The translations under genes were made by a program, and so were the position numbers. This document shows positions 35,901 through 64,000 of a stretch of DNA of 64,000 bases, one piece after another. The stretch comes from Sipunculus nudus (Eukaryota; Annelida; Sipuncula; Golfingiida; Sipunculidae): contig CM049313.1 in assembly GCA_026874595.1 (NCBI GenBank), positions 72,656,659 to 72,720,658 on the forward strand, in the 5' to 3' direction. Each line of letters opens with the position of its first letter. Positions within the stretch are counted from its first letter, which is position 1. Below the pieces are notes generated by a model. That model saw only the letters and a list, made by a program, of their open reading frames with translations. It did not search any database and was not told the DNA's origin.

Positions 35901-38900
35901 AACATTAACACATTTATGAGCAGCCTCTCTCATGCCTTACATGCTGGCATGCTGCATCCGATAGTGGAATTTTCCTTTTGTCTCTTAAAAAAGTGTACAG
36001 TATTTATGAAAAAAAGTTTGTAAAACATAGTAAGGGAAAGTGTACCTGTTTTACCTGAAATAATTCTCAAATGTTGCAAATAATAGGAAGTTCATAAATA
36101 ATAGAAATTTCCATGATTTATATAAGCTTGTATGGGAAAGTTGGCTTAGGTGCTTAAGGGTTCTTAAATGAAATGTTGACAATTCATGCTGGTTAATCAT
36201 GAATTCTGCTTAAGGAGAAAGCTAAAAATGGGATTCCCCATACATAATTTCCTCGTTTCAAAGCATATTCAATGTAATAGTTCTTGTGAATAATATATTG
36301 GATAAAATGACATCTTTTCCTTTCAACTGGTACTTTCTTTCATATAATTTGATAACCCTTTAATTTGTCACACCAGAAAAAAAAGAGTATAAATAAGATT
36401 TTGAATAGCATTTGCTGGAAATAACTTGTTACATTTTTTGGATTTCTGTATATATTTGATGATGGCTTAATCATTCATACTTCAATTTTGTAACCAATCA
36501 TATAAAAACTTGATTTTGATTCGTTTTTCACATTTTATAGAGAGAAAATCAAATGTAGGCAGTCTGTAGGCTTAAATTAAGAAAAATGCAGGCTCAGATT
36601 TCAATTTGCTTGTCTTTTACAGGTGATATAAGGTTACCTGGAAGAGTACAGGAGGCCATGCAGATGCAGGTGGAGGCTGAGAGGAAGAAAAGAGCTGCAG
36701 TCTTAGAATCTGAAGGTAGATCAAATGATGTGCAAGCCCTTGTCAGTTGTTGTAGTATTTGTTTTCATTTATAATATCAGCAACCATGCATTCAGTCTTG
36801 CTTGGATAACTGGAACTAGTCTGTGATATAGGGCTGTTAGATGGTGTTTCATTGACACCACTTTTGACAACCTGAACTAGTCCACATGTAAGGGTGTACA
36901 TGGTATGGTAAGTACCTCACCATATCACTATAATATGTTTTCATCATAACTAGCAGTGCTTTTATGTCTTTAATGATTTATCGATGTTCTTTTTAAGGGA
37001 TATCTCCTTCAGATGCAGACATTCATGCTAATATCTCAGGACTCCTAAGACATATCTGCCTGAAATTTTGCAGTGTACATATCTTACATAGCTCTACAGC
37101 ATATACAAATTTGATGGCCAAAATTACAACCATTTTGGTATGGTGTCCATCTGTTCATCTGCCAAGGGTAAAAATTACTCATATCTCAGCAGTGGTTTGG
37201 CTTATCCACCTGAAATTTTGCATATGTAAACATTTTAGATAGCTTTCTCTTTCATTACAGTTGGCGCCACCTTTAATCATGTTTACGTAGCAGACATCCA
37301 TGCTAATATGCAACACATCTCACTTAATATCCCTCTATATGCCGCTCAATCCATGCCTCTCTTCACCTGTCCCACTCTGATATAGGCAGATACACGTAGT
37401 CGCTTGTGAACTACAAGTACAGTCTAACCTGTCTGAACGACCACCTGTGAAATGCCGGCACCTGGCTATTACAACCACTAGATATCAGTCCCTTTAGAAA
37501 TACTGTTATATCATCTATAGATAAAACCTGTGAAATTTGACCACCTGGCTATTACGGATTACCGGCAGTTTTTCCTAACCAAAGTGACATATTACTTATT
37601 AATTGACTTGCCTAATGCGGGCACTTTGTGCTACTCACTGACCAGCGCTGATCAGTCGGTTGATAGACCATGCGTGAAGTTGCGGTCACTTACACCGCTC
37701 TCTGTTTGTTTTACCAGTGTGCATGTGTATGGAGCACAGACTGGTTATTATTCGGACTCTGGGCCTACCCTGGGCCTGGAACCCCAGGCTAGCAACGTGA
37801 CTGGCTCACACGACCTATTAATCCACAGGAATGGAGGTCCCCCAAAAGTTAATCTTTGATCTGTGACCCTGTGAACTGCTCTATTAAGTGCATTATATGA
37901 AAGGCTTTATTACAAAGAATGGATAACCTATGATGTTCCTAACAAGGAAGTGATGTTAGTAAAACAATTTTGAGTTGTTCATATGAGCACATTCATTGTG
38001 TCAGAAGAACCTCTAACCTCTGTAAATATGAGTACGTAGATTACCTCCTAATCAACTGTGTGCAAATTCATTCTGTATATCAACACTTCAAATTACACAT
38101 ATAAGTACATGTACATTTGTGTGCAATTACAAAATACATGTATCACCAAGATCGTTCCCTTCTGCAAATATGTTTTTATTTATAGTCATAAAGTTGTTCT
38201 AATATGTATATGTCATTTACATGTCATCTAGATTTGTGCAGTTCCTTAATGTTCAGAACCTGTCAATTACGACCACCTGTAAATTACGACCACTTGTGCC
38301 AAGTCCCTTGGGTGGTCGCATTAGACAGGTTCGACTGTATTCTAGTTTATAAATATTATACAATGGAAAATACAAAGGAAAAAGTAAGAAAGTTTTAATA
38401 GACCAAAGTAAGCTGTCAGTTTCATTATACACATAAAGAAAATAGAATAGAGGAAAAATACTTTTGATGGATTGCTTGGTAGGAACAAAGCTGATAAAAT
38501 ATTGCTCATGATATTTTTCAGGTGTTAGGGAAGCAGAAATTAATGTGGCAGAGGGAAAGAAGAGGTCTCGTATCCTGAACTCTGAGGCTTTCAAGGCGGA
38601 GCAGGTCAACCAAGCCACCGGTGAAGCTGAGGCATTATTAGCAAAAGCTGCAGCCAAAGCTAAAGCCATAGAGATGGTAGCTGAGGCATTAGGGAAACAG
38701 GTAAGTCAGGCGCAGCAGAATACTCACATTTCATTTAAAGTGGAATCACTGCAAATAAACCCTTCATTTTAATAAACCAAAAATTCATTTAAAACTTACT
38801 TTATACTTATAAATTATGTATATCATTAAAGCCTTGTGCAGTGCCCTTTCTGATAGTTTTGTTTCTGTGAAATTCAATCATTTTCATGTGATATTTTAAT

Positions 38901-41900
38901 ATTTTTGAAATGTTAATTTTTCAAAAAAGAACACAATTTAATAACCCATATATTGCAAACCCTTGCTAACCACCACTATAGCAAAATGAAGTTTGTGATT
39001 GGTGCACCAGCTTCTGTGGCTCAGGGTTAGAGCACAGGGCATAAAGCCGAGAGAGTGTGAGTTTGAATCTCAGGACCCTGAGTGAGGACCCTGCACGCTT
39101 AATAGGGAGATTGTACCCTACAGTTGTGTTCCACCCCCAAATGAGTGCGCCTTTTGAGGGTTTCTCAGACGACCCAGCAATGGGTATGACACACACTAAG
39201 GACTTGCAGGAGTGATACACCAAGCCTGGTTGACACCAGATTTGTCACATGTAAGCCACTGTTACATAGTCGGAATGGAATGCTACAGTTGTGCGTACTT
39301 AGTTAAGCAGGCATTACAAATGGAGGTGTTTACCTCAGCAAAAAAAAAAGTCTAAATTAAAAAAAAAGGAAAACTTGTGATTGGAGCAGGTGTCCTCCCA
39401 TCTGTAGGCCTGTATACATTAGTTGCTTATTAAGCTTAACATAATTCTTGTTTGTAAGTAAATAATGCTCAGTTGGATATTTGTGTGCACAAAATTCTGA
39501 TATTACATTAACGTATGGCCAGCTTGCTTGCTAGTCAGATTCATTGTCAGATAGAAAGCATACGTTTCTTATTGTGTGTATCAGCTGTTTCATGTTCTGG
39601 TATTCAGACTAATGATGTATTGAAGATAAGTGTGTGCTAAAGGGCTGTAGCAAGAGATCTGAATTGTCATTCCGAAGTGAAAGTTTTCATCATGATAAAG
39701 ACATAGATTTTGATATTTTTTTGCAGTAATTTCTTGTGTTCTAATTAATCCTGTATCAGAAGGCAAATATCACATTTATTTAGCTAAGCTATGCTATCAT
39801 TTGGTCTATCATGCATGGTATCATGTGCTGCCATCTACCATTTTTTTAAGAACTAAAACAGCAGGTGCTGCCCAGAAGTAATCCGGACAAGTAATGTAAC
39901 GTATGTAATGTTTAATCTATCATAAAAGTGTCAATTATCACCTTACACTGCAGAGCAAGAATATTAATTGACAAACTCTGCTATGGGATTTTCTGTATTA
40001 CCTGTCTTATGTCAGCAACCAGTTTTGATGGCTTGCTGCTTACTACATGAATTCTCATGCTTGTTTGAACGTGTATCATCTTTAATGTTTCCCTGACCAG
40101 ATAAAAAATATCATAATGGACTTCTTTCAGAACTTTGATTTTACAGTCTCAAAATAAACAAATGATTTTTATATTTCAAAGATAAAAACCTTAAAAATCA
40201 TTACATTGTCAATTGTTATAATTGAATAATAGATTTGTGAAAGGTTAATATGAAGCAATATCATACATAAACACATGGCGTTTAAATTTTCTTTTTAAAT
40301 AACAAATCATTCTCACAGACATCTGTACATAAAATGTCATATCATGATGGTCAAATGAAATTGAAAATAGTTTATAGATTCTTAAAATATTTTTGTTTTC
40401 AGTTTATTGAGCTCAGCCCATTTTTAGCTCAGCTGACTATAAGTCATCTGAGCTATAGTTGTGGTCCTTTGTCCGTTGGCTGTCTGTCCGTCCGTCTGTC
40501 CGTCCGTCCGTTAAACTGGCACGTTTTGAAACCGTTAGACCTACGAATCTAAAATTCAGCACACCTGTTGATGTCCCCAAAATCTCCTACCATACCGAAA
40601 ATTGGGTCACTAGGACTTCTGTTTCTTCGAATTATTAAGGAAAAACCTCCGTTTTCCATTTAAAACCCATTGTTACACTTCAAGACTGCCTAATATCAAA
40701 ACCACTGACCTGATATTGACCATTTTTAATATATTTATTCCTCTGTATATTTCCTATGTACATACCAGAAATTACTTCAATATTTTTTTAAATTCTTGAA
40801 GTAATGGGCCCAAACAATGCACTTTTAAAAAAATTCAGGAAATATATTTACTCCCTTAAGTTAAGAATTGCTGAAACTAGACACTTTCTTTCAGATGTAT
40901 AACTATAATTAATCAAGATTCAATTGTATACCCAAAATTAGATCTGAATTTTTAAAATTTTATGAATTATTAGCATAAATATAAAATCAGTAACTTAAAT
41001 TTTGCCCAGATTTGACCATGGCACATTTTTTTCCTGTAACTGCTGTGGATTTAATTTTCACTGCATGCTACCATGAGCATTTCATCTCTAAACATCTGAA
41101 ATTTGAAACCAGTTGATCAAAATCTGTAGATTTTATTCAAGTTTTCAAGCACCATGTAAATTATTGTTTAGACCAAGCAAATGTTATGCAGTTTGCTAGA
41201 GCTCAGCTCCCCAGCTTCCCAGGCCAGCTCTCAGCTCCCAAAATTTGGCATACAATTAGATGTACCCGAAACCCCCCTACCATTCCAAAAGTTTTGTCAC
41301 TAGAACTTTATTCCTTCTAGATATTAAAGTCCGTTTCATCCCCTCATGTCCACCTGTTTTTTTGCTATGAAAATTTTTATTAGTTACAACTAAGGGAAAC
41401 AATTATAGTGTAGAGCAGAGGATTAAAGAACCTAATTTTCAACAAGATAAACAAATACCTACCATACACCTTATTTAAGAAACAGAATTATTTTAAAATA
41501 TGAGAAATCAGTCTACATTTTACAACATATCAGACCCATTTATGGCGGTCAAGGTCATTGGTCACATGCAAAAACAGCCTCAACTGACAGCTGTTGATTG
41601 GATGATCTCATGTAAACACTCTAAAAAATATAACCAGCTAAAACAAAGATGGCTACTTATGGATGGACACTTCATATCTGCCAGATCATGGTGAAGAGAC
41701 TAAAATGTTGTAAAACATAAACGGCAGATTTATTGTAAAATTCTTAATTGCCATATTAGGTTGTCACTTCCATATGTTAGTTTATTGGAAATTAATGAAA
41801 AATATAAACATTTAAGAAAATCATCAACAAAAAACAGGTGGACAGCATGTGGTGAAACCGACTATAAGAAAAATAATTTTCAATTAAAAACCCATTGTTA

Positions 41901-47313: not shown

Positions 47314-47859
47314 AAGAGAGAGATAGATAAATATAGAATAGGCCATCAATGATTCATGTAGTCAAGACTAAACTGTTCATAACAATGGAAAGGAATGAAT
47401 AAGTCCCATTTTAATATATTTGTGATATTTCTAATATGTGTATGAAGTTATAAGACAAACATTTCAGTACAATGCTTTAATCAAAACATATATAGCATTT
47501 TTATAAAACCTGGAAATAGCTGGTGACATCAATGTCACTTAAGGAGGGTTGTGGGAGAAGATGACTTGTCAAAGAAAAATAAATTTGATGCCAAAAGGCA
47601 GCATTATGAGATGTCATTTTATTAATGCATTTCTGTTCCTGAACGCTACCCAAAATGATGATTTCCCTGTCTTCTACACATATAAAAACAAGCCTCCTTA
47701 TAAAACAAGTGGCCTATGGGCCATGACGCCCAGCTGAATTAGGGATGAGCAAAATGACTGCCAGAGTGCAAACAAATCATGAATTTTGTGAAAAGTCCTT
47801 AGAAATTGGTTTCAGTTGGCTTTTGGACAGATGACAACTTCATTCGAAGGTCTCATAAA

Positions 47860-50224
47860 TAGAAAAAAAAAATGCGTAAAAATTTGAAAAAAATACAGGG
47901 AGTGCCACCAGTGTACAGGAACTGATGAAACACTCCATGATCAATAAATATCCAAAAAATTATGGCTATCAAGGCATTAGTTATTCCGATACTGGAGCTT
48001 TTGTTTGTATCAAATTTTTAATTATTCTTGGGGGTATTTATGAGCCCTATAGCTCAGAGAATATGGGTAACAGAAACCTAATTTCAAGTTTCCAAGGAGA
48101 TTTTTCATTAAGTCTCCCTGGATATCAAGTAAGAAGATTCTAGGTACAGCAGTTACAGTTTGTGGCACGTTAACGGATGACCACTTCATTTGAAGGTCTC
48201 ATAAATAGAAAAAAAATGCCTAAAAAATTGGAAAAAAATACAGGTGGCGCCACCAGTTTGCAGGAACTGATGGAACACTCCATGATCAATATGCCTGCAA
48301 AGAATCATGGAGTTCAATGCATTGGTTATTCAGATACTGGAGTTTTGTATCAAATTTTTAATTATTCTGAGGGATACTTACTACAAAGGATTTAGGTAAC
48401 AGAGACCTAATTTCATGTTTTCACAGAGACTTTTCATGAACCTCCCTTGATGTCAAGTTAGAAGAATCTAGGTCCAGCGGTTACAATTTGTGCCCTGTTA
48501 ACAGATGACAGCTTCTTTGAAGGTCTCAAAAATAAAGAAAAAATTTCGTAAAAATTGAAAAAAAAATACAGATGGCGCCACCAGTTTGCAGGAACTGATG
48601 GAACATCCCATGATCAATATTCATGCAAAGAATCAAGGTGATCAATGCAGTAGTTATTCAGAGACTTGAGCTTTTGTATCAAATTTTGCATTATTCTGGG
48701 GGGAACATCGGAGCCCCATAGCTCCAAGGATATGGGTAACAGAGACCTAATTTCAGGTTTTCAAGGAGATTTTCCATGGACCTCCCTGGATATTAAGTTT
48801 GAAGATTCCAGGTCCAGTGGTTACGACTTGTGCCCTGTTAACAGATTACAGTTTCATTGAGGTTTGAAAAAAAAGAGAACAAAATTTGAAAAAAATACAG
48901 GTGGCGCCACCAGTCTGCAGGAAGTGATGGAACATCCCATGATCAATATTCATGCAAAGAATCTTGGTGATCAATGCAGTGGTTATTCAGATACTTGAGC
49001 TTTTGTATCAAATTTTGCATTATTCTGGGGGATACTTCAGAGCCCCATAGCTCTGAGGTTTTGGGTAACAGAGACCTAATTCCAGGTTTCCAAGGAGACT
49101 TTTCATGGGCCTCCCCGCATGTCAAGATAGAAAATTCTAGGTCCAGCCGTTTTGATTTGTGCCCTGTTATCAGATGACCGCATCTTTTAAGGTATCAAAA
49201 ATAGAGAAAGAAAATTGTAAAATATAGAAAAAATACAGGTGGCGCCACCAGTCTGCATAAACCGATGAAACAGTCCATGATCAATATCCATGCAAAGAAT
49301 CATGGTGATCAATGCATTAGTTGTTCAGATATTTGAGTTTTTGTATCAAATTTTTATTATTCTGGGGGGGTACTTCAGAGCCCCATAGCTCGAAGGATAT
49401 GGGTAACAGAGACCACATTCCGGTTTCCATGGAGACTTTTCATAGGTCTCTCAGAATATCAAGAATGAAGATTCTAGGTCCAGTCTTTACGATTTGTGCC
49501 CTGTTAACAGATGTTCACATTTTTAAAGGTCTCAAAAATAGAGAAAAAAATTCGTAAAAAATAAAAAAATATAGGTGGTGCCACCAGTCTGCAGAAACTG
49601 ATGAAACATCTCATGATTAATATGTATGCCAAAAATCATGACCATCAGTATTGTAGTTACTGAGATATTGAAGTTTTTGTATGGAATTTTTCACTATTCT
49701 GAGGGGTACTTTGGGGCCCCATATCTCGAAGGACATGGGCAATAGAGACCTAATTTCTGGTTTCCATGGAGTCTTTTTATAGGTCTCTCAGAATATTAAG
49801 AATGAAGATTCTAGGTCCAGTCTTTACGATTTGTGCCCTGTTAACAGATGTTCACATTTTTAAAGGTCTCAAACATAGAGAAAAAATTCGTAAAAAATAG
49901 AAAAATACAGGTGGCGCCACCAGTCTGCAGGAACTGATGGAACATCTCATGATCAATATGTATGCCAAAAATCATGACCATCAGTGATGTAGTTAATGAG
50001 ATATTGGAGTTTTTGTATGAAATTTTTGACTGTTCTCGAAGGATATGGGTAACAGAGACCTAATTCCAGGTTTCCAAGGAGATTTTTCATGGACCTCTCT
50101 GGATGTAAAGTAAGAAGATTCCAGGTCCAGTGGTTACGATTTGTGCCTTGTTAACGGACGGACGGACGACGGACAAAGAGTGATCGCTATAGCTCAGATG
50201 ACTTACAGTCAGCTGAGCTAAAAA
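47860..50224 (-). repeat. seven-unit tandem array, about 330-bp period, with terminal hairpin
   Basis: Units are marked by GGTGGCGCCACCAGTCTGCA or a variant near 47900, 48243, 48571, 48900, 49238, 49574 and 49910 (spacing about 328-344 bp). Each unit has AACTGATGGAACA, a GAGCCCCATAGCTC-like word, GGGTAACAGAGACCTAATT, and CAAGGAGA. The right end has GTTAACGGACGGACGACGGA, CAAAGAGTGATCGCTATAGC, then the hairpin AGCTCAGATGACTTACAGTC AGCTGAGCT. It is thus the reverse-strand, amplified form of the repeat at 23.4, 28.6 and 56.6 kb. Confidence 0.9.
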
Positions 50225-50585
50225 ACAATAATTGCATCAAATACAGAAATAAAAAAGTATGTGATTTTCAATGGTGGACCCAGGCAAAAAATTACAGGTA
50301 ATGAATGGGTGGATTAATCTTCCCCAATTAGAAGCAAGCTTTGGTACCCAATAAATCATCTCTTAGCACAGCTTTATAGGAAATTTAAAAAAATGAATTA
50401 TCGAAAACAAAGATTAAATATCTTCTATAAATGGGTTGCTTATACCTAAAATTATAATGCATATGTAAATTGTATGTATTACAATGTCTCAGAAAATGTC
50501 TTTTCTGTTATATAGGCTATGCAATTAAAACTAAAACATCAAAGTCTGTCTGAAAACATTCTTATACATGCGCTCTTCTCTGTTA

Positions 50586-52930
50586 TCACTGGAAATTTCC
50601 AAAGATGTTGCGTCTTGTTGTTGACTGATTTGCGAATTCTCCGTCAAGTTCGTTGATATTAGTTGTGTCCAACAGTTCTTTGTGTACATTACATATGCAT
50701 ACACTGTTCAACCTCACCTGGCCCATTGTGCTGCGGAGCCAGGTTTTTAATCTTCGAAGAGTCGAGAATGTACGTTCGTTTTCGCAAGAAGTCACGGGAT
50801 AAACAAGAAGAAGCTTCATCAGAATGAATAACTGTGAAAACAAGGCCCTTACTTCTGAAGTCATCTTACGGTAGGCAGTCTTGGCTTCTTGGGGGGTTTC
50901 TGCTTTTGTTGTGCCTTTGAACATTTTCAGCTGTATGGAAAGCTGTGATATGTCTAACTCTGGATATGATTATGCCGTAACCTTGACATCCCCTGTGGTG
51001 ATCATACGTTCTAATTCCTTGTACGTAGACAGGCCAGATTGGTTTTCCTCACATCTAGATTTCAAAGCAGTGATCAGAAAATCTAGGAACTGGACATACT
51101 GCACTCTGTAATATTCTTCACCACTCGCAGGTTGGTAATGTGCTGCCGGTCCAGAATAACGTTTTGGGGGTTGTCGTCTTCTTGGTACTGTAATATCTCT
51201 CAGCTCATAATCCTTACATTTCTCAGTTGCCTCTTTGAATATATCAGCAAACTTTTCTTCCGTACGCAAGCTCTGAATTTCTGCAATAGTCACATGAACA
51301 GCAGACATCATTTCTGAAACATTAGCAGACTGTGCCTGCAGGGCACTGTTTAGCTGTTCCAGAATCGCTATAGGCTTCAGTGCCATCATCAATCCAAGTA
51401 GCGTTTCTCCTTTTAGAAATGTGTCAAGCAGACCATTGGCTTTGGTTGCCACCTCAGCAATGGTAGATTGTGATATTTCTTGTAGACAATGAATGATGGC
51501 CTGGTAGTGTATAAGGGCAGCATTAATTGGCCCAAAACGACAAAGCCATCTTGTTGGACAAAGTGGGCGAATACAGCCTGCTTTAGATGGGATGTCAGTG
51601 TCGCTATTACCTGCAGATATTTCCTCAAACCATGCCTTATGCTTTCCAGATCTTTTCAGCATAACCCCAAGCTCATGAACCCACTGAACTGAATCCCGGA
51701 TAAGCGGACATACATTGATTGATTGTTCCATAACTAAGTATACAATATGTGAGCTGCAATGTAGAAATAGTGCCAAGGGTTGTCTCTCCTTTATTTTGGC
51801 CTGGCAGCCTGAGTATTTTCCACTCATATTTGCGGCTCCATCGTAGGTTTGAGCCCGGAGATCATCAAGAGACAGATTTAATCTAGTGATCATATCAAGA
51901 ATCATATTGGCAATGGTCTCTCCAGTTGTTTCTGGTACCTGTTACAAGCCAAAGAAATCTTCATGAATGTTGAGTTCCTGGTCAACATGACGGAAGCAGA
52001 TTGTTTCCTGCTCTTTTCCCGTTATATCTTGTGTGCCGTCAACCATGATTCCATAAATGCCATGTTTCTTAACGGTAGCAGCTAAGTCTCTGATGATGTT
52101 ATGACTAAATGGATCTATCATATCTGTTTGAGCTAATCAAGAAGTAAAAGCAGTTGTTCTTTTGAGATAAGAACTCAGAATGGGATCATCATCAGCCCGC
52201 AATTTTAGTAGTTGCATGAAATTGCCTTCACCCTCGAGATGCCCACGAAAGGCTAATCCCTGACGTAACAAATATCTAACAGAGGTGAATAATTTCAACA
52301 AACAAGCTCTTGCTTCCTCTTGTCTCCTCTTGTGTGATTCATCGAGTAGGGCAGTAACAGATGGTTTCTTTATGGCACTGAACTGATATACTGCATTTTG
52401 GTGTGTCTTAGAGTTCTGATGAGCTTGGAAACGTTCTGGCTTTTTCCAGTTGTCAAAGCCAGCTGACAGAAATGCAGGTTCTTGCGCTTTTGCTAGTCTC
52501 AGCAGTCCCAAAGATTTTGCCTTTGAACATTGGAAACACAAAACCCTCTTTATTTCAGGTACATAATGTAGCCATGGGTATTGTGAGAACCATTTTTGCT
52601 GGAAAAATATTTTCTGAGACTCTGTTTGTTTGTACGGAATGCTTGATTCATGGGGCTGATAAGGTTCTTGATACTGTATCATTGGTGCCTCCTCACTTCC
52701 ACCGATGTTTGGTGCAGCTTGATCCTTTTTAGAGCTTGTGCATGGCATTGGTGCATTCTGTCCCTCTTCTGACTTTTCTGTTTCGGCTTAGATTTGCATG
52801 ATGTGTCCTCTCGCATAGAGCAGCTCCCCTGATCTTGATCGGAGTCTTTGCTAAAACTTTGAAGAAATGTTTTATGCTGGTGATCTTGGCTCTTTTTACC
52901 TTGGAGGATTCGCCACGTTCAGCAATTCTA
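50586..52930 (-). pseudogene. hAT transposase, ZMYM1/DUF4371 type, inactivated
   Basis: One minus-strand frame runs from ATG at 52748 to a stop at 50586 (721 codons) with three internal stops: TGA at 52139-52137 (codon 204), TAA at 51944-51942 (codon 269) and TAA at 50972-50970 (codon 593). Domain order: TTF-type zinc finger (for example QYPWLHYVPEIKRVLCFQCS, then HQNSKTHQNA), DUF4371 and RNase-H-like core (GIMVDGTQDI, QTYDGAANMSGKYSGC, LCPTRWL), and the C-terminal hAT dimerisation motif (CENERTFSTLRRLKTWLRS). Upstream, in shifted frames, KRAKITSIKHFFK and SFSKDSDQDQGS look like the usual N-terminus, so at least two frameshifts lie at 52750-52930. hAT transposases cut and paste DNA with an 8-bp target duplication. 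Few lesions in over 2 kb imply a fairly recent death. Confidence 0.9.
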
Positions 52931-53806
52931 TGTGTTAAAACGTCTTTACAAATGCACTCATTTCTCGCACAAACACAGGGTCTGTAGCCGTGAATTTTAG
53001 TATTTGCTGTTTATCGTCCTTTATGTGCTTTATTTTACTCCTCAAAACAAGTAATTTAATGGTCTTCATTCACACCCAGGTTAAGGTTTTTATCGGTTCG
53101 GTATATTCAGAAATATTGTTTCTCGTGGCCCTCGTGAAATATCCACACAATATTTAAACTGCTTTGAGTTATTTAAAGTTCCACAGTTCTGAATGCACAT
53201 TGCTTAAATATATGTGTTGTAATATTTGACCAATGCTTAGGATACACATTCTCCTTTTATGAAAATAAATAAAATCAGTCAAAATAGGCTTCACTCACCT
53301 CTGACAATCAGATGGACTTCATAAACTAAACCAAACAAAACTAATGCCAGGTACTTAACTGTAAGTAACTGCCCTGTAAATCCAAGGAAAAGGAACCAGG
53401 TGTTGTCAGATTGTCTGATTAATCGCAGATCAAAAAGTGTTGGTCGAGAACAGCTTGGCAATAAGGTACAAGATATGAGTATGGGCACACATTACACATC
53501 TCTCTGTTATAATGAATATTCTCTTCAAATAGTTATATTGATGTAATATTAATAAAATTGGCATACTCCTGGAAACTATCCCAAATCACAAATTCTAGTT
53601 TGACATAAGGAGGTATATTTGTGCATAAATTGCAATAGTCTTGCTAGTAAATACATGTAATAATTAATTTCCAGTGTGTAAACCTCATGCTCTGAAACCT
53701 GGGGGGGGGGGGGGGGTGATGATTACCTTGATCATCCCCCCCCCCGGCTGAAAATTGGGGGGATATATACCCCCATCCCCCCTGTATTGACGCCCCTGAT
53801 TGTAAA

Positions 53807-54045
53807 CACAGCAATGTTGGCAAACAGAAAAAACTATGTTACCTTCCTGGTTGCTTGCATTTGTGCTGAAATATAAGGATCAGTAGTTGCAAAACATCTT
53901 TTTAAAACTCGGGTTCATCAGACTTCCTGAAAGATGTCCTTGTTGAAAGTGTTTGGTTTATTTTGGCAGGCCCCCACATGTTATAAACATGTGGATTAAA
54001 ACAAACAGCTTTCGTGCGGTTTGATTGGTGTTTTCTGGGCTAATT
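53807..54045. other. no feature recognised
   Basis: Short spacer between the hAT right end and the first 1.39-kb repeat. Confidence 0.4.
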
Positions 54046-55437
54046 TAAGCGAATCTGTGAGCTTATGCGATGGTGCGGCGAAGTCCGTCGTGCGTCAGTG
54101 CGTAATGCGTCTTCTGTACGTTAACCCATATTATCTCGAAAACGGCAGGAGCTTGCATTACCAAACTTTATGCAAAAAATCAGTCATCTAAGAAACTCTA
54201 TCGGATTTAGGTTTTTTTTTTGGCTGTCTGCATTTACTTAGATTTTATAGGGAATAGCTTAAAAACCTTTAAAAATATTCTTCTCCTAAATCGTCCAACC
54301 AAATTGTCCAATATTTCATAGAAATAATCCCAGAAAACAATCTCTCTCAAGTGAGTTTGTTCAAATGCTTCCAGTTCGGTGATTTTTGGCCGAGTTATGG
54401 GAAGTTGAACTTCGTCATCATACCAAAAAAGCATACTTAAATTACAATCTCAGAAACGGCTGGAGCTATCATCACCAATTTTATGCCAATGTTGGTCACA
54501 TGAGTCGTATCTGAAATTGAGGTAAAGGTGGCGCCACCTGCATCGACCTTTAATGTAGGGGGGTCATCAGTGCCCGTATCATACTTACGGCTACAAAAAA
54601 CTTCTTCTCTGAAACCATATGTGAAAAAATTGTTTAATATCGCACAGAAATGATCCTAGGGTAGTGCTTTCTGAAGTTTGTTCAAATTGTCTCAGTTCAG
54701 TGACTTTTAGCTGAGTTATGGGAAGCTGAATTTAGTCATATGCTGTAACATCCCCATTTTAGCTCAGTGGCTGCAAAGATCTTTTCAAAAACCACTGGGC
54801 TAGATTCTTAAATCTCACACATTAATTATCCTTAGATGTTGATAATTCAAGTTTGTTCAAATGGTTTTGGTTCAGTGATTTTTGGCTGAGTTATGGGAAG
54901 CTTAACTTAGCCATTTTGCTGTATTTTCCCATATGAGATATAAACCTGTAAAACGTTTTTTGAATGATGCCACTGAGGCCAATTTGTTTAATATTTTACA
55001 AGAATAATCCTCTGAATAATTTTTATAATAATTGTTTTTTATGGTTCCAAAGAATGAATTTTGGCTGAATTATAAAGATTGAATTGAGTCATTTTACCAT
55101 ATATGTTAGCTGTGTGAAGCACATACATCTAGCCTGGCACCAGTTTATCAGCATCCGTTGCATCATGCCTCTATAGACATTTAGATTTCAGGTTATCTAT
55201 TGTTAATATTGACAAGAATGTTTTTAAAAAGCTTTTAAAAAATATAGATTTATGATTTTAGATATTCCTCATGCCAGGCAATTTTTACAATTACAGGTAT
55301 ACAGCTTTCTGTGGGTATATAAAGACGGCATGGATTATAAATAATTGGTTTCCATACTCAACTTAATTCAAGATTTTGCCATCAGTGAGATGTATCTGTA
55401 TTATAATTTTGCTTTCAATATGCATCTGTAGTAATTT
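54046..55437 (+). repeat. 1.39-kb repeat, copy A
   Basis: Begins AGCGAATCTGTGAGCTTATG CGATGGTGCGGCG with GTCCGTCGT words, contains GGTGGCGCCACC at 54527-54538 and ends near TATGCATCTGTAGTAATTT. It aligns along its length with 60937-62326. Not recognised as a known transposon superfamily; no protein coding. Confidence 0.85.
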
Positions 55438-56245
55438 ATAGCGAACCTGTGAGCTAATGCGATGATGTGGCAGTGTTCGTCGTCCGTACGTTAACCCATA
55501 CTATTTTGAAAACATAATCTTTTATACCAACTCTCTCAAGTTTGTTCGAATGGTTCAAGTTCGGTGAATTGTGGCCGAGTTACAGGAAGTTGAACTTAGT
55601 CATCTATCAAAAAAAAGCACACTAAAATGACAGTCTCGGCAAGAGCTATCATCACCAAATGTTATGCCAGTGTTGGACACATGAGTCATATATGAAATTC
55701 AGGTATTGGTGGTGCCACCTGCATTGGCCATTTTTTGTACGGGGGTCATTGGTCATCTGTACATTAACCCATAATTTCTCAGGAATAGCAGGAGCTACCA
55801 TCCCCAGATTTTATGCAATAATCTGTCACATATCAGATTTTGTGGGATTCAGCTTATTTTTTGCTATCTGCATCAACTTAGATTTTATAGGGTAAAAGCT
55901 GAAAATCTTTTAAGTCTTCTTCTTGTAAACGGTCCAGCCAAATTATTCAATATTTTACAGAAATAATCCCAGAGGCAAGCCCTCCCAAGTTTTTTCAAAT
56001 GGTTTGCATTTGATGAATTTTAGTGGGATTACATGAATCTGAACAGTCATTTCGCCAAGTAAGCATACTGACAAAGTAATCTCAGAAATGACAGAAGCTA
56101 GCATTACCAAGGATTGTGCAAATGTTGGTGACATGACTCATATTTGAAGTTGCAGATTTTGTGGTGCCACTTACATTGACCTGTTGTGTATGGGCAAAAC
56201 CTCACAATTTTAGTCTCTTTCAGCTTAAAATGTTTATGACGAAAC
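55438..56245 (+). repeat. 1.39-kb repeat family, partial copy C
   Basis: Starts AGCGAACCTGTGAGCTAATG immediately after copy A and follows its order (GTTAACCCATA, CTCTCTCAAGTTTGTTCGAA, GGTGGTGCCACCTGCAT) before diverging. Confidence 0.75.
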
Positions 56246-56640
56246 TGTCAAGTTGAATCGTTCAATTTTTCAAAAGAATTATCCAAGGACATGGTTCTAT
56301 CAATCATATCAGAAACGCTTAAGTTGGTTTTATGGCCATTATTATGTCTATTTCAAACTGAGGACTGCAAAACTGTTCTTCTACAAAATTATTGTTTCAA
56401 TTATAACTTCTGTATTTCTACAGAGGAATTTTATATATCAGCCTGAAATTGGGCAAGTATATACTTATCGAATAGCTTTGTCGTATACAAGACTGTTGGT
56501 GCCACCTACAATAATTTTTGCACAGTGTGTGTCCCTGCTTATTTTCAGGAGGGGTTTGATATATTATTCTGAAATTGGGCATATGTATATATCTCTGATA
56601 GCTTTGTTGTATACAAGACTGGTGGTGCCAGCTACAATCA
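56246..56640 (+). repeat. repeat units with GGTGCCACC punctuation
   Basis: Two units of about 120 bp with GAAATTGGGCATATGTATAT and ATAGCTTTGTTGTATACAAG ACTGGTGGTGCCA words, matching parts of 62990-63220. Confidence 0.65.
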
Positions 56641-57130
56641 TTTTTAGCTCAGCTGACTGTAAGTCAACTGAGGTATAGGAATGGCGCTTTGTCCGTCGTC
56701 CGTCCGGCCGTCCGGTTGTCCGGCCGTCCGTTAGCAGGGCACAGATCGTAACTGCTGGACCTAGAAACTTTTAAGTGTATATCCAGAGAGGTCAATAAAA
56801 AATCTTCTGTGAAACCTGAAATTAGGTCACTGCGACCTATATCCTCCGAGCTATGGGGCTTGAAAGTACCCCCCCCCCCCCCCAGAATAATCAAAAATAT
56901 TATACAAAACCTCCAATATCTTGATAATTGATGCGTATTATCATGAATCTTGCCTTGAATATTGACCATGGCTAGTTTTGTAAGTTCCCGAAAAGTGGTG
57001 GCGCCACCTAAATTTTTTTGTTATTTTAGCGAATATTTTTTTATTTTTTATTTTTTACAATAAAATGACAACAATCATGTCAGTTTCTAAGCGGTAATTA
57101 CATTTAGTGTCCTAAAACCTGGTGTGTTTA
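56641..57130 (+). repeat. hairpin-family repeat, uninterrupted copy
   Basis: TTTTTAGCTCAGCTGACTGT AAGTCAACTGAGGTA, then GTCCGTCGTCCGTCCGGCC, GTTAGCAGGGCACAGATCGT, GGTGGCGCCACC at 56997-57008 and ATGACAACAATCATGTCAGT. Serves as the uninterrupted reference for the split copy in STOML2 intron 1. Confidence 0.85.
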
Positions 57131-58080
57131 TTGATCACAAGTGGATGCCATATAGTTATCACTCTGTCTGTCTGTATGTCTGTCTCACTGTCTGTCTGTC
57201 CATCCGTCCATCCACACAAATTTGTTTCCAGATGATAACTCCAGGTTGTATTGACACATGGATTTCAAACTTGACTTACATATGGCCCACCACTAAAGCA
57301 AGAACCTATATGATTTTGGGGTCATAAGGTCACTTCATAAATAAATAAAAAAAAAAAACACACACAATGTCCATGTGTATAGAACATTTTGTTTCGTGTA
57401 ACTTCAAATACAAATGTTTGTTTTCCAGTTTGTTTGAAAAAGGTGACCGTGCGAAAATTTGAGTGTGTTAGGAACAACCTTATAATGTTACATTTCTCTG
57501 TGTTTGTTCCACTGGAAGAAATTGCAAAATAAAATGTCGATGACTCCTTTATTTTCGAGTAGAAAATAATTTAAGGTAAAGATATTAGGATCTATCACAG
57601 TAGGGTAAGATAGGTCCTGGTAAATTTCCTTATACGACTTTGAAAGAATAAAAAGTGCTTATACAAAAGAAATTTTTTCTTAAAATATTATTATAGTCGA
57701 GGAGGTTGGACCATAATTAGTAATAAGATTTTGAAAAATAATTTAATACTAGGTGATGAAATTCGGGAGAACATCTCATTTGAAATTAACGTGTTCACCA
57801 ATAATGCTAACAATTTCAATCGTTATTTAAGCTGAAAAAGAAACTTTCCGACTATAAGGCCGTCAAGTGTGACAATCCTGTGTTTACAGAGCTTTTAGCC
57901 CCGCACTTGGCCCATTGTGGACGGCAAAGGAGGAGGATGCAAGCTATGCAGGGCGAAGTTCTGGGCTGGCAGAAAAAAAAATTCCTTATAACAATGGATA
58001 TCAGTGGAATGGGTTGCCCAGAAAGTGACAATTTGTGTTCAAAGAGAGAAATAGGCAATTAAGAGATAGGCAAGAATCAA
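57131..58080. other. no confirmed gene; CTGT-rich microsatellite
   Basis: Degenerate TCTGTCTG/CCATCCGT run at 57163-57218. A 60-codon plus-strand frame at 57880-58062, which follows a TGTTTACAG acceptor-like site, was not recognised. Confidence 0.35.
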
Positions 58081-58527
58081 AGGACGCGGTCACAACACGC
58101 TGCGGTCACCGCAAACCATAGAGTACCGTGCGGTTTTGGGGACCGCAGGAATACTTACGCCTCGGTCGCAACCCGCTGCGGTCACCGCACACCGTAGATC
58201 ACTGTTCGGTTTTTGAAACCACAGGAATACTTATGCGGCCGACGTGCGGGAACGGCACGGTGTCTTCCTCATTCTTACGGCCATCGCACGGTAAAGTAAG
58301 CTAACCCTGCGGACGCCGTAAGCTAACCTTGCGGAAGTCGAAAAAATCCCCTTACGACAGCCGCAGGTACACCGTACTTCTCTCGGGTAGCCGAGTAGGC
58401 GTTAAAAATCGCACGTGCATCCTACGACATCCATACGTCTACTGTACGGTGCCCGTACAGAGCCCGTAGGTGGCTGCCTGACGCACGGCCGCCGCATCAA
58501 CTTAAGCGCTTGCGCTAATGTCAGTTA

Positions 58528-59965
58528 AGGCGGTTTCACACCGGATGCGTACGAACGAATTTTACGTCCGAACGAAAATTTGCTGTACGAACGAAAAAAT
58601 AAAACACTTTATTTTATGTTGGTGCATACACACCTAATCCGAACGATGCTATCCGAACGAAAAATTAGAACATGTTCTATTTTTTGTCGTTCGCATCGGA
58701 CAAGAAAGACTTCTTTTCACCTTCAACACAAAAGAGCTGGAATATTTTTAACCAGATTGGTTCATTTATACGTTACCTTTTTGATATATATGTAATACTG
58801 TACAACATAGAAGTGTTGTTTCCTTGTTCACTATTTTAAAATTATGGGATGAAAATATAAATACAGGGATTATTTTTATTTAAATCAAATTTATTTGATT
58901 TAAACAGATATTTAAGACATTTTTTTAGCTCAAGGTTTTTTCACTTAAACCAGACTTCTTTTCTATATAATCTGTAAATTTCCTGGGGGGGGGGGGGGGA
59001 GGGAATATATTTTTATCAAAAGGGATTTCAATTGCCGCTAGGCCACTTATTTTAATTTACAATCGGGGATAGAACAGACTTTTAAACCAGGTTTAGATGT
59101 AACTTTTTCATGGTAAATTCTAATACTTAATATATTATTTGCAATATATTAAAGTTATTCTCTGAAAGCGGGGAGGGATGATTACATTGCTCATCCCCCC
59201 TAGCCCCCCCCCCCCTATATTGACGCCCCTGAATATAAGTCAACTGTGTAAGCGATATGAACACAAATTTGCGACATTATCCAGGACAGGCTGTTCATTA
59301 CCAATAAAAAATCAGCGGTAAATATAGAGAAAAAAAATCATGGAACAATAACTTTTTTCATTTGTGTTTTGTATCATTATCATAGTATTATTTTTAGTTC
59401 AACGTTTTGCATTTAAACAGAAGTTTCATAGCTGTGCGCAGACTGTTCAAAATCATATTGGCAGATTTGAAAATGAAATATAAATCAAACTTAACTAGTG
59501 ATTCAAACTTTAATTTAACTTGAAATGCTGCAGTTACAGTGGCATCCGTTCTCTTGAAACAAGAGGTTGCGCAATTATTTTTAAATTCATGTTGAAATAG
59601 GAATTTTGGTCGAGTGAGTGGTAAATATTATTTTCAATTATACAGTCAGTACACTCAGAGATAAAAACTTTATTATTAATAATTATTAATTAAAAATTAA
59701 TGAGAAAATCAATTTACACGTTCAGAAATATTCGACATTTTTATATAGGTCTATATATAAAGCCTATATTTTAAGTGCATCTGATATATTGCTCATATAT
59801 CTGTCCATTATGAATTTCGGAGACGAAAATTCCTCGGTCGGAAACCAAAAATATCGTTCGGATTTGGTGTGAATGAAATTTCGGATGCGACAGGATTTTA
59901 GTCGGAACGACAGAAATATTCGTTCGTGTCATATTCGTTCGGACGCATCCGGTGTGAAACGGCCT
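58528..59965. mobile_element. TTA-flanked element, PIF/Harbinger-like target, nested
   Basis: Left end AGGCGGTTTCACACCGGATG and complemented right end AGGCCGTTTCACACCGGATG differ at one base in twenty, then both continue CGT.CGAACGAAT. TTA flanks both ends (58525-58527 and 59966-59968). A 3-bp TWA duplication is typical of PIF/Harbinger elements. Interior is AT-rich with no transposase; it also holds a hAT-type end at 59231. Confidence 0.8.
58983..59231. mobile_element. hAT-type terminal fragment inside the TTA-flanked element
   Basis: TATTGACGCCCCTG ends at 59231, preceded by GGGATGATTACATTGCTCAT and C-runs, the same layout as the hAT right end at 53700-53798. A G-run at 58985-59000 may mark the other side, but no complete left terminus is seen. 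Confidence 0.55.
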
Positions 59966-60047
59966 TTACGGTCGTTGCGGAGCCCCTGCGGCCTTTGAAA
60001 AACGCACGGTTGCCGTATGGCGACCGTATCCCGGTTGTGACCGAGGC

Positions 60048-60514
60048 TTTAGAGGGACCACCTTTACAGCACAAAGCACGCTGCAAGACATGTGTTGTGT
60101 TGAAAGGTCTTAAACTTTGTTATTGTAATTTACCGGCTGTGGAATTTTATACCGGGCTTTAGACAAGGTCATATGTTACCGTATTATGGATTAACTTATT
60201 AAGCTGTATTTCTCAATTACCCTGGAGTGAACCATGTTTATGTCTGATTTGCAAGTTAAACATAACGCCTATTATCTTTCAGTATCATCCTCTAGCCCTG
60301 CGATAGAACAAACATGAGTGATCCATTTTGTATATTGGGTTCCTTTAAGTTCTGTTCGTCTCCCATCTCATTGCCACCAAAAGCGAGTCTTTGCAGATGT
60401 ACTAGGACACCTGCAAATTCGAAACACATGGTTTTACCTTATTTATAATAAATGTTAGTGAACAACCGAGAGTAATCATCTGCCTGGGTATCTTCTTGTT
60501 ATGACATCCATGGT
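60048..60514. other. no feature recognised
   Basis: No coding or repeat structure seen between the GC-rich element and the ubiquitin pseudogene. Confidence 0.4.
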
Positions 60515-60932
60515 CAGATGGAATAATCAATTGAAGAATTGGATCATTGTTGAAGTCATTAATTGTAAGGCCATCTTTCATTGCCGTTCCATCCAGGACA
60601 AAATGCTGCTGATATACTGGAACGCACTCCTTCTCCTTGATCTTGGCCTTAAGATTCTTATTTGTATCAGAAGGTTCAACCTCCAAGGTGATGATCCTGT
60701 CATCAAACAAGATAAGTATGTGTCTGCCGCCGTATAAAACGCAGAATCATATTGGTAGTAGATTCATTCTAAACATTGTCGTGGATACGAGTACGACTTT
60801 CTCCTAAATGTTTCCCAGCAAAGTCGAGACGCTGCTTCCTGGCAGGATACTTGCTTTTTGTTGAATCACTCGCTTGGCATTCTGTATGGTGTATGGCTCA
60901 ACTTCAATGATGACTGTCTTGCCAGTCAGATT
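60515..60932 (-). pseudogene. polyubiquitin pseudogene, two decayed units
   Basis: Minus strand. Unit 1 (about 60932-60721) reads LTGKTVIIEVEPYTIQNAKR, then in a shifted frame RKQRLDFAGKHLGESRTRIH, a stop, and NESTTNMILRF. Unit 2 (about 60717-60520) reads [39 protein letters not shown] and NDPILQLII. These follow ubiquitin ([20 protein letters not shown] to ESTLHLVL) through two head-to-tail copies, but with many replacements, at least two frameshifts and a stop, and no RLRGG end. Functional polyubiquitin is nearly invariant, so this is a dead copy. It has no introns, compatible with retroposition. The upstream side abuts a 1.39-kb repeat at 60937, which may have truncated it. Confidence 0.85.
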
Positions 60933-60936
60933 TTTA

Positions 60937-62326
60937 GCGAACCTGTGAGCTTATGCGATGGTGCGTCGTCGTCCGTCGTACCCCGTGTGTCGTGCGTCGT
61001 ACGTCGTCTGTACGATAACAATAGCTATCTCAAAAACGGCAGGAGCTAGCATCACCAAAATTTTTGCAAATAATCAGTCATCCAAAAAACTATATCGGAT
61101 TTTGTTTTTTTTTTCTTACTGCATTTTCTTAGATTTTATCGGGAAAAAGCTAAAAAATGTTCAAATATCTTCTTCTCCGAAACTGTACAGCCAAATTGTC
61201 CTTATTTCACAGAAATGATCCCTGGAACAATCTCTCTCAAGTTTGTTCGAATGGTTCTAGTTCGGAGATTTTGGGCCGAGTTACAGGAGGTTGAACTTTG
61301 TCATCTGTCCAAAAAAGCATATTAAAATTTAAATCTCAGAAACGGCTGGACCTATCATCACCAAATTTTATGCCACATAGGTCACATAGGTCATATCTGA
61401 AATTGAGGTATTGGTGGCGCCACCTGCATCGGCTTTTTTTGTACGGGGTCATCAGTGCCTGTATCACACTGAGGGCTACAAAAAACTTCTTCTCTGAAAC
61501 CATATGGCCAAAATGTTTAATATCGCACAGAAATGATCCTAGGGAAGTGCTTTCTGAAATTTGTTCAAATGGTCTCGGTTCAGTGACTTTTGGCTAAGTT
61601 ATGGGAAGCCGAATTTAGTCATATGCCATAACAACCCATTTTCGTTCAGTGGCTACAAAGATCTTCTTCTCAAAAACCACTGGGCCAATTTCTTAAATCT
61701 CACAGGTTAATTATCCTCAGATGTTGTTAATTCAAGTTTGTTTAAGTTGTTTTGGTTCAGTGCTTTTTGGTTGAGTTACGGGAAGCTGAACTTAGCCAGT
61801 TTGCTGTATCTTCCTATATGAGTTATAAACCTGCATAACGTTTTTTGACTGTTGCCACTGAAGCCAGTTTGTTAAATATTTTACAAGAATAATCCCTACA
61901 ACAATTCTTATAATAATTGTCATTAATGGTTCCACATGAATGATTTTTTGGCTGAATTATGGAGATTGAATTGAGTCATTTTACCAGATATGTTAGCTGT
62001 GTGATGCTGTTACATCTAGTCTGGCACAAGTTTATCAGCATCTATTACATCATCCCACTAGTTATTTAGATTACAGGTTATCTTTGGTTAATATTGACAA
62101 GAAAATTTTTTTAAAAGCTTTTAAAAAATTATATTTATGATTTAAGTTATTCATCATACCAGGCAATGGGATATTCATGGAGTTTCAGCTCTCTGTGGCT
62201 ATATAAATACAACTGTAGATGGATTATAAATTATTGGTATCCCTACCTAACTTATTTCAAGAATTTGCCATCAATGAGATATATCTGTATTTTAATTTTG
62301 CATTCAGTATGCATCTGTAATAATTT
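60937..62326 (+). repeat. 1.39-kb repeat, copy B
   Basis: Begins AGCGAACCTGTGAGCTTATG CGATGGTGCG with CGTCGTCCGTCG words, holds GGTGGCGCCACC at 61413-61424 and ends near TATGCATCTGTAATAATTT. Colinear with 54046-55437 at an offset of about 6886 bp. Confidence 0.85.
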
Positions 62327-62880
62327 TACATGTATTCCTGATTTCCTTTTTTAAAAAAGTCAGCTGTGAAGCATTTTGTATTGGGAAAATTAATTTCAAA
62401 GTTATTTCAAGTAGGGACCACTTTTGTGTACAGATGCCATCACTTGGTTTACCGTTGGCAGATTGCCAGTGCCTTGATGTTGGCCATTAGCCAAGATGAT
62501 GTCAGCTCTATAAATAGTTTTGGCACAGTGCCTGGATTGGAAGAAGTGCAGCACGGTATAGGTCAAGAGTTCACTCAGTGCAGTAGTTGCATTTTATTTA
62601 TAGCTTTGACAGACTGCTCACTGCATCAGATTTGGCACCAAATTTCAGCCTGGATCTATTTATAGCTTTGGCAGATTGCCAACTGTGTCAGATTATGCAA
62701 CAGGTCAAGAGTTTTCTCAGTGCAGCCAAATCAGGTCAAAAGTTCACTCAGTCTAGCCAGGTGCAGGTCAAGAGTTCACTCAGTGCAGTAGCTTGAGGCA
62801 GCATTTTGTCACAGTTCACTCGTAGGCAACTGCCTTACTCACCTATGCCTCATCAGCCCAGTGCATCAAACTCTGGGGAA
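62327..62880 (+). repeat. short interspersed direct repeats
   Basis: CAAGAGTTCACTCAGTGCAG or near variants occur at about 62559, 62708, 62741 and 62773; TATTTATAGCTTTGRCAGA occurs twice (about 62598 and 62659). The latter words also appear in inverted form at about 33025-33105 in STOML2 intron 1. No gene. Confidence 0.6.
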
Positions 62881-64000
62881 GTTTGATGTATTGGCCTGAT
62901 ATTTTGACCTGTCTATGCGTCTTTGATGGTATTCTCATTAACAAGACAGGTGGTGCCACCTACATTGACTTTTGCAGTGTATGCGCCTGCTTATTTCTAC
63001 AGAGGAATTTGATACATCAGCGTAAAATTGGGCATGTTTATACATATCGGGTAGTTTTATAGTGTACAAGACTTGTGGCGCCACCTACAATAATTTTTGC
63101 ACAGTGAATGGCCCTGCTTATTTCACAGGAGGGTTTGACATATCAGTATGACATTGGGCATATGTATATATCTCTTCGTTGTATACAAGACTGGTGGTGC
63201 CAGCTACAATCATTGTATCCGCCAAAACAGAGTTTTGTTGATACTATGTTTTCAGTTAGACGCCGCTGCCGCTGCGACCGCCACTGCCGCATAGGTTTCC
63301 CGAGAACTCCTCCGCAACCACTGGGCAGAATTTTTTTTTTAAATTTCGGAATTATGATCGGGTCACATGTGAACTGCTGCGCCCTCATTTTTGGTTGACC
63401 TCTGACCTTTCCTCTCTACCCAGTGTCCCTTTGTTCGTCTGCTTCCAAACATAAACCCACATATCTGGGGAACCGTTTGACCGATCAGGCTAAAAAATTT
63501 GTACAAATGTACCCCTTGGATAGCTTTATAACATACACTTAAAATGGTGACGCCACCTGCAACCATTTTTGTACAGGGTCCATCTGTTCATCTGCCTTGG
63601 GATAAAATCACTCATATATCTCTGCTTTGGTTGGACTTATCTACCTGGAATTTTGAATGTGTACCCTTCCTTGACAGCTTTCTTGATTTTATGACAGGTG
63701 GCGCCACTTACATTCACATTTACGCTGCAGATATCCAAGCTCATATCTCGGGAACCATTTGACCGTTTCGGCCAAAATGTTGCTGGTTTATAGATCTCAC
63801 ATAGCTCTTTATCATACGCAAAACTGGTGGGGCCACCTGCAACCATGTTTCCACAGCGTCCGTCTGTTTGTTTGCCGTGGGATAAAATCACATATCTCGG
63901 CAGTGGTTTGACATATCTGCCTAAAAATTTGCAGGTTTATACATCTTGGATAGCTTTCTGGATTTTGTTGCAGGTGGCGCCACCTACATTTATCTATACG
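62881..64000 (+). repeat. CATATCTCGG...GGTGGCGCCACC repeat array to window end
   Basis: Successive diverged units of roughly 120-150 bp, each ending in GGTGG(C/T)GCCACCT or a variant (near 62950, 63075, 63202, 63545, 63698, 63828 and 63973) and containing CATATCTCGG, TTTGACATATCTGCCT and GGATAGCTTT words. Continues beyond the window. Frames across it are not genes. Confidence 0.8.

What the first reader, a model, noticed from the sequence alone, without database searches (positions are those of the whole stretch)
47860..64000. One 12-bp palindrome punctuates several unrelated repeat families
GGTGGCGCCACC occurs exactly at 48243, 48900, 49238, 49910, 54527, 56997, 61413 and 63973, with one- or two-base variants at over a dozen other sites (23.7, 30.97, 37.26, 55.7, 62.95, 63.08, 63.2, 63.55 and 63.7 kb among them). 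Less than one chance copy is expected in 64 kb of AT-rich DNA. It sits at unit boundaries in three families whose other sequence does not look alike: the hairpin family, the 1.39-kb family and the CATATCTCGG family. Either the families are ancient branches of one modular repeat, or the palindrome is kept or spread as a recombination, protein-binding or replication site.
Basis: partly seen in the sequence, partly recalled or inferred. Interest (0 to 1): 0.75.

Follow-up and report, generated by a model that had tools for sequence, protein, structure and literature searches.

The report
Shared palindrome of rolling-circle transposon repeats
A 12-letter DNA palindrome occurs over a hundred thousand times in this animal-like genome because it is an old, fairly well kept part of a repeat unit carried by several families of non-coding rolling-circle transposons; what, if anything, keeps it is not shown.

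Summary
In detail: 8 exact and 15 near copies of GGTGGCGCCACC in the window, 0.33 expected. Genome-wide there are 111,729 exact copies against 14 for the reversed control.

The families are not unrelated. Their flanks align around the 12-mer, directly or through intermediates, as branches of one old repeat unit. The unit fills the core of at least two sets of elements with different ends. Both have the layout of HINEs (non-autonomous Helentrons): subterminal inverted repeat plus its complement, microsatellite, core repeats, 3' palindrome, insertion at T runs.

The 12-mer is kept somewhat better than its flanks (non-CpG identity 0.84-0.90 against 0.72-0.79; clear in three of four models). It is one of a few conserved boxes, and not indispensable: an amplified subfamily carries a broken version, and the 1.39-kb family model goes against conservation.

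Tests for recombination, inverted joins and hairpin folding at it were negative. Verdict: an inherited box spread by transposition and array growth; protein binding, for example CTCF-like, is possible but untested.

The parts
47703..50224 (-). H-family HINE-like element (5' end at 50,224, 3' end near 47,703), core of about 329-336-bp repeats; 6 palindromes within 2 mismatches, 4 exact
   Evidence: 5' subTIR AGCTCAGCTGACT plus complementary IR, then GTCC-rich stretch; 3' TCAGCTGGGC, TGGCCCATAGGCCA and CTTGTTT
48243..49921 (.). palindromes of the H array: exact 48243, 48900, 49238, 49910; variants 48571, 49574
50186..50224 (-). H 5' hairpin (subTIR and IR) behind a T run
   Evidence: DNA fold -10.6 kcal/mol, z -4.62
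54044..55437 (+). 1.39-kb (E) family copy with exact palindrome 54527
   Evidence: 83.7% identical to 60932-62326
55437..56640 (+). diverged E-type copy ending in C-type monomers; palindromes 55708, 56495, 56621 (1-2 mismatches)
56640..57123 (+). H-family copy, 5' end at about 56,641 and one core unit, exact palindrome 56997
60932..63212 (+). E-type copy followed by C-type monomers; palindromes 61413 (exact), 62949, 63074, 63193
63213..64000 (+). S-family HINE-like element, 5' part (runs off the window): hairpin, CCG-rich stretch, then B/A monomers with palindromes 63546, 63697, 63826 (1 mismatch each) and 63973 (exact)
   Evidence: 5' fold -5 kcal/mol, z -4.54
37000..37420 (+). S-family 3' part: A/B monomers, palindrome variant 37260, decayed 3' subTIR and hairpin
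   Evidence: its 3' fold is not better than shuffles
23377..24070 (+). old H-family copy, palindrome variant 23702
30914..31087 (+). H-family core fragment, palindrome variant 30967
   Evidence: 82% identical to 56943-57123
28568..28818 (+). H-family fragment without palindrome
   Evidence: 81% identical to 56716-56944
40423..40520 (+). H-type 5' end (subTIR, IR, GTCC-rich stretch)

Best explanation
GGTGGCGCCACC is a conserved box of one old satellite-like repeat unit. The unit now exists as alternating monomers of about 130 and 149 bp (A/B, a 280-bp dimer), as a 336-bp unit (H) and as older relatives (C, G, K, and E of the 1.39-kb family). These units fill the core of non-coding elements with the layout of HINEs (non-autonomous Helentrons, rolling-circle transposons). 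The copy number comes from copying of the elements and tandem growth of their cores, not from movement of the 12-mer itself. Shown: the counts, the homology, the two sets of ends, insertion at T runs, and modestly slower divergence of the 12-mer in most models. Inferred: rolling-circle copying, by analogy and by the presence of Helitron-type Rep genes. Also inferred, and about as likely as no constraint at all: that the slower divergence reflects weak constraint on active copies, most simply recognition of the duplex by a protein.
For: 111,729 exact copies against 14 for the control. Array spacings of about 128-132 and 147-151 bp, and 331-338 bp. Ungapped left-arm matches over 50 bp: H-B 26 (0 of 2000 shuffles reach it), B-G 30 (0), A-C 37 (0), A-B 36 at a shift of 2. 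E against B: best left z 4.7, best right z 6.2 and 7.2, 0 of 200 shuffles each. Complete elements in held DNA: 6 with H ends (4 of 6 carry palindromes) and 5 with S ends (5 of 5) (one L062 pairing dropped as spurious). An S element inside an H arm with H resuming behind it in L066. Models blind to the 12-mer: non-CpG identity in random stretches plus window 0.885/0.89/0.838/0.90 (H/A/B/C) against arms 0.784/0.755/0.788/0.718; 95% intervals exclude zero for H, A and C. Left arms alone predict 44 places in random plus window DNA, 34 with the 12-mer within 2 mismatches. At least 143 Helitron_like_N matches (150 of 195 candidates scored), seven in frames over 2,000 aa.
Against: The E model gives the 12-mer 0.671 against arms 0.828 (20 usable hits); 8 of these 20 have at most 1 mismatch and 8 have 6 or more, probably other internal repeats of E. 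Of six E-B left comparisons only two reach z 3; of six right comparisons two exceed 6, one is 2.5 and three are below zero. H against A, C and E is not significant at register zero. In family B with exact flanks only 9 of the first 100 places are exact, 32 if CpG decay is allowed, and 53 belong to a T3A/C subfamily (31 are GGAGGGGCCACC); the next 12 bp does as well (21 of 71 exact, identity 0.903 against 0.914 for the 12-mer's non-CpG sites). Two of six complete H-ended elements carry no palindrome. No autonomous partner with H or S ends was found; only three loci of about 3.5 kb were looked at.
Confidence: 0.8

Rival explanations
1. The palindrome is a recombination or junction site: arrays grow, end or are exchanged at it, as reported for the 12-bp palindrome of phBglII400 satellite DNA in a clam.
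For: PMC5139131 (passages and section 12 read): 13 of 16 junctions lie at a 12-bp palindrome. Here 3' ends of homology blocks often lie 11-31 bp behind the palindrome start: 15 of 30 for H, 11 of 24 for A/B.
Against: Arms on the two sides are co-inherited: correlation of pairwise distances across the palindrome is higher than within arms for A and C and not different for B and H. 0 of 124 predicted places are inverted joins. In 8 of 140 copies the 5' end of another element begins 9-30 bp behind the palindrome; of two such looked at further, L066 shows the H arm resuming behind the insert and L068 does not evidently. Other block ends cluster at +49 to +55 and +66 to +73.
Confidence: 0.12
2. The palindrome is a binding site of a host architectural protein, for example a CTCF-like zinc-finger protein, spread through the genome by the elements.
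For: Among 112 sites with up to one mismatch in held DNA (many from loci chosen for the 12-mer), 106 have T then A/G on at least one side, giving YAGGTGGCGCC on one strand (by composition about 30% expected, my estimate). PMC5739101 (one passage) prints a CTCF site ATGCAGCTAGATGGCGCTC, which shares TAGnTGGCGC. The CTCF and Drosophila CTCF consensus is otherwise recalled. In the cross-family C model the non-CpG bases are kept while the CpG decays.
Against: No binding, chromatin or methylation data. The upstream part of the recalled vertebrate motif is absent. Common flank variation could follow from shared descent alone. A subfamily with GGAGGGGCCACC has amplified. The listings of the paper searches showed no mollusc motif; four of the listed papers were opened for passages.
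Confidence: 0.12
3. The palindrome acts as a single-strand hairpin in rolling-circle replication, like the 3' palindromes of these elements.
For: It is a perfect palindrome inside presumed rolling-circle elements.
Against: Folds of two examples are no better than shuffles (-3.4 kcal/mol, z -0.76 and -1.12), whereas the 5' hairpins give z -4.62 and -4.54. CpG decay is rarely compensated: 1 TA form among 32 CG/TG/CA/TA forms in the family B sample.
Confidence: 0.05
4. Purely passive inheritance: the 12-mer is only the visible remnant of a unit that expanded, with no constraint. This differs from the best explanation only in the last, inferred step.
For: No clear advantage over the adjacent slot in family B; amplified subfamilies with broken palindromes; E model against.
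Against: Near-top window in three of four blind models (ranks 4, 5, 32 and 4 of 111 for H, A, B, C in the unselected set); in H 44 of 100 exact against 26 of 100 for the adjacent slot, though the two samples are anchored differently.
Confidence: 0.45

Closest known systems
Cg_HINE elements of Crassostrea gigas (PMC7492417; passages and section 6 read)
   Same: 5' subTIR, complementary IR, microsatellite, satellite-like core repeats, 3' subTIR and palindrome; cores sharing boxed conserved segments between otherwise dissimilar monomers
   Different: Other sequences in another genome; the one monomer length seen in the text read is about 168 bp. The full-text search for GGTGGCGCCACC listed only one unrelated paper, so it is not in the main text of this one
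DINE-1 / HINE families of Drosophila and mites (PMC4067079; passages read)
   Same: subTIR, IR (DINE-1), 3' stem-loop, T-rich or TT insertion, central repeats
   Different: Core repeats with a shared palindrome across families were not described in the passages read
phBglII400 satellite and DTC84 element of clams (described in PMC5139131; passages and section 12 read)
   Same: Monomers with a 12-bp palindrome (phBglII400) or a conserved palindrome near the repeat junction (DTC84)
   Different: The palindromes' letters are not in the main text; junction clustering at the palindrome was not supported by the linkage test here
BIV160 / Cg170 bivalve satellites
   Same: Old satellite shared with mobile-element cores, two conserved boxes (as described in PMC5139131)
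   Different: BIV160 primers printed in PMC5139131 match the window no better than three shuffled windows for one primer (17 of 25 against 17-18) and barely better for the other (16 of 21 against 15)

Membership tests
HINE (non-autonomous Helentron) | subterminal inverted repeats of about 11-15 bp at both ends | tested here: met
   H: GCTCAGCTGA (10 bp, 11 in some copies) at 5' and its complement at 3'; S: GTATCCGCCAAAA (13 bp) and its complement
HINE (non-autonomous Helentron) | inverted repeat next to the 5' subTIR | tested here: met
   5' hairpins, z -4.62 (H) and -4.54 (S) in the window copies
[quoted passage not shown]
   H GACCCATGGGTC and S GTAGTCG-cttgt-CGACTAC by reading. Folds are better than shuffles in one of four copies: L063 H z -3.22; window H z -0.54, L065 S z -1.83, decayed window S z -1.01
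HINE (non-autonomous Helentron) | insertion into T-rich or TT sites | tested here: met
   6 of 6 H-ended elements preceded by TTTTT; 5 of 5 S-ended preceded by TT and followed by TT; one nested insertion with the interrupted arm resuming. Empty sites were not compared
HINE (non-autonomous Helentron) | microsatellite and tandem core repeats | tested here: met
   GTCC-rich and CCG-rich stretches, arrays of 280 and 336 bp
HINE (non-autonomous Helentron) | autonomous Helentron partner with the same ends | tested here: inconclusive
   143 Helitron_like_N matches; no H or S ends in three short loci
BIV160 satellite | match to BIV160 monomer | tested here: not met
   Primer sequences only, best 17 of 25 and 16 of 21 in the window; shuffles 17-18 and 15. 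Full monomer not available
phBglII400 satellite | same monomer and palindrome letters | not testable with these tools
   Sequence is not in the text held
CTCF binding site | bound by CTCF | not testable with these tools
   Motif resemblance only

The most novel reading that the evidence does not exclude
Rolling-circle elements have seeded more than a hundred thousand copies of a two-sided recognition site for a host chromatin protein (CTCF-like core YAGGTGGCGCC back to back), and source copies keep it because binding helps the elements spread.
Probability: 0.1. Interest if true: 0.85.

Novelty: new member of a known kind. Interest (0 to 1): 0.42.

Why it matters
It turns an odd punctuation mark into a concrete object: a marker of one old satellite-like unit shared by element families with different ends. 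Satellite cores carry conserved boxes whose role is open. With this many copies, plus natural subfamilies that have lost the palindrome, the question of what such boxes do can be tested by binding, methylation and rate measurements.

Tried and rejected
Viral contigs: 34 stretches with GGTGGCGCCACCTRCA, none aligning to the window by blastn at E 1e-3; they look like chance matches. Papers: the 12-mer itself gave one unrelated paper. Rfam: nothing at gathering threshold.

A first attempt with ungapped position matrices drifted to other parts of the H unit in models E and D and was dropped. In the gapped models, hits not covering both sides were dropped: usable of all hits H 38 of 57, A 50 of 66, B 44 of 55, C 68 of 76, E 20 of 42. 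Copies can appear in more than one model. Loci L035-L042 and L063-L070 were chosen because they hold exact 12-mers, so the unselected comparison uses only L043-L062 and the window. In the random stretches alone the H difference is positive but its interval includes zero (-0.005 to 0.189), and A, B and C have too few copies (3, 2, 5).

Inverted joins, linkage breaks and hairpin folding at the palindrome were tested and not found. The L062 H pairing was rejected because it starts from the wrong side of the hairpin. The slot samples are the first 100 listed places of one contig; 29 of 100 were dropped because they lie in a satellite block. The one-mismatch count for CTGCAGACATCC (36,587 exact) and the A-family slot test could not be completed because the server was busy.
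Full report
What was checked. The 8 exact positions are correct. There are 23 sites within 2 mismatches against 0.33 expected. Genome-wide the count is 111,729 exact against 14 for the reversed pattern, and 218,178 with up to one mismatch against 575. The CpG-tolerant pattern gives 158,045, so 46,316 copies differ from the 12-mer only at the central CpG.

Where it sits. In 20 10-kb stretches at round coordinates there were 6 exact, 10 one-mismatch and 10 two-mismatch sites and none for the control. Of 135 sites (up to 2 mismatches, full flanks) in all held DNA, 87 were assigned to a family at 60% arm identity; of the other 48 most show, by eye, shifted or reversed arms of the same kind, and a few (among them window 24,401) show none. 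Arrays show spacings of about 128-132 and 147-151 bp (A and B monomers alternating) and of 331-338 bp (H).

One family, not several. Left arms of 50 bp align without gaps around the 12-mer: H-B 26 of 50 (0 of 2000 shuffles), B-G 30 (0), B-K 25 (1 in 2000), A-C 37 (0), A-B 36 at a shift of two bases. H against A, C and E is not significant at register zero, so part of the link is through intermediates. E, the 1.39-kb family, joins B in its best comparisons (left z 4.7; right z 6.2 and 7.2), but most single E comparisons are weak.

What carries it. H elements begin behind a T run with AGCTCAGCTGACT, a short loop and its near-complement, then a GTCC-rich stretch; they end with TCAGCTGAGC, the palindrome GACCCATGGGTC and CTTGTTT. 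S elements begin with GTATCCGCCAAAAC, a loop and GTTTTGCGGATAC, then a CCG-rich stretch; they end with the complement of the start, the hairpin GTAGTCG-cttgt-CGACTAC and ATTCTAG. Single copies vary from these forms. The 5' hairpins fold significantly in two of two window copies; the 3' ones in one of four copies tried. This is the layout of HINEs in PMC4067079 (passages) and PMC7492417 (passages and section 6). Of six complete H-ended elements four carry palindromes, of five S-ended all five (the L066 H element includes a nested S). In L066 an S element sits inside the T run of an H right arm, and the H arm resumes behind it. Helitron-type Rep domains occur at least 143 times, but no partner with these ends was identified in the three loci looked at.

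Is it kept? Models with the 12-mer masked were searched on 313 kb. In the unselected part (random stretches plus window) non-CpG identity was 0.885, 0.89, 0.838 and 0.90 for H, A, B and C against 0.784, 0.755, 0.788 and 0.718 for the arms; 95% intervals exclude zero for H, A and C, not for B (20, 10, 8 and 14 copies, some shared between models). It ranks 4th, 5th, 32nd and 4th of 111 windows, so it is one of several conserved boxes. Flank-anchored samples from the genome point the same way in H but hardly in B. In H, 44 of the first 100 of 3,297 places are exact, non-CpG identity 0.948, against 26 of 100 and 0.912 for the neighbouring slot (first 100 of 11,230); the anchors differ, so this is a rough comparison. 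In B only 9 of the first 100 of 2,753 are exact (32 allowing CpG decay), and 53 belong to a T3A/C subfamily, 31 of them exactly GGAGGGGCCACC; non-CpG identity is 0.914. The next slot has 21 of 71 exact and identity 0.903 (71 of the first 100 of 6,984; 29 in a satellite block dropped). These samples are the first listed places of one contig. In the E model the 12-mer scores 0.671 against 0.828 for the arms; 8 of 20 hits have at most one mismatch and 8 have six or more, probably other internal repeats.

What it does. Recombination: arms are co-inherited across the site and none of 124 places is an inverted join. Homology blocks do often stop shortly after it (15 of 30 for H and 11 of 24 for A/B within +11 to +31); in 8 of 140 copies another element begins there. 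Hairpin: two examples not better than shuffles. Protein binding: possible; 106 of 112 sites with up to one mismatch carry T and a purine on at least one side, giving YAGGTGGCGCC, which resembles the CTCF site printed in PMC5739101 (one passage). The general CTCF consensus is recalled. No binding data exist here.

Verdict. The palindrome is an inherited box of an old satellite-like unit, spread by HINE-type elements and array growth. Modest constraint is plausible in some branches and not seen in others. Scale and sharing between element families are notable; the kind of thing is known.

Noticed in passing
window 50586-52748 (-): Pieces of a hAT transposase: Dimer_Tnp_hAT (E 2.6e-6) and a DUF4371 match below its curated cut-off (E 1.2e-5).
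   Followed up: partly
window 60402-60710 (-): Open frame with a ubiquitin-family match (E 1.4e-10).
   Followed up: no
window 58524-59969: Inverted ends of about 60 bp (84%) 1.4 kb apart, looks like a terminal-inverted-repeat element.
   Followed up: no
window 3586-5239: Array of 29-bp units in an 85-bp higher order, TCACAGTTGACTGCTCTGTGA.
   Followed up: no
window 40652-42379: 512-bp direct repeat at 77% identity behind an H-type 5' end.
   Followed up: no
G000:C1 about 10.738-10.783 Mb: Block of B-type monomers with a 5,287-bp spacing seen three times in the capped list: the element core may also exist as a long satellite array.
   Followed up: no
G000:C1, first 100 places: Amplified subfamilies with broken palindromes, GGAGGGGCCACC (31 of 100) and GGTGGCACTACC (9 of 100): natural controls.
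   Followed up: partly
L049 5362-2755, L056 4177-6023: H-ended elements without any palindrome within 2 mismatches, so similar ends can carry another core.
   Followed up: no
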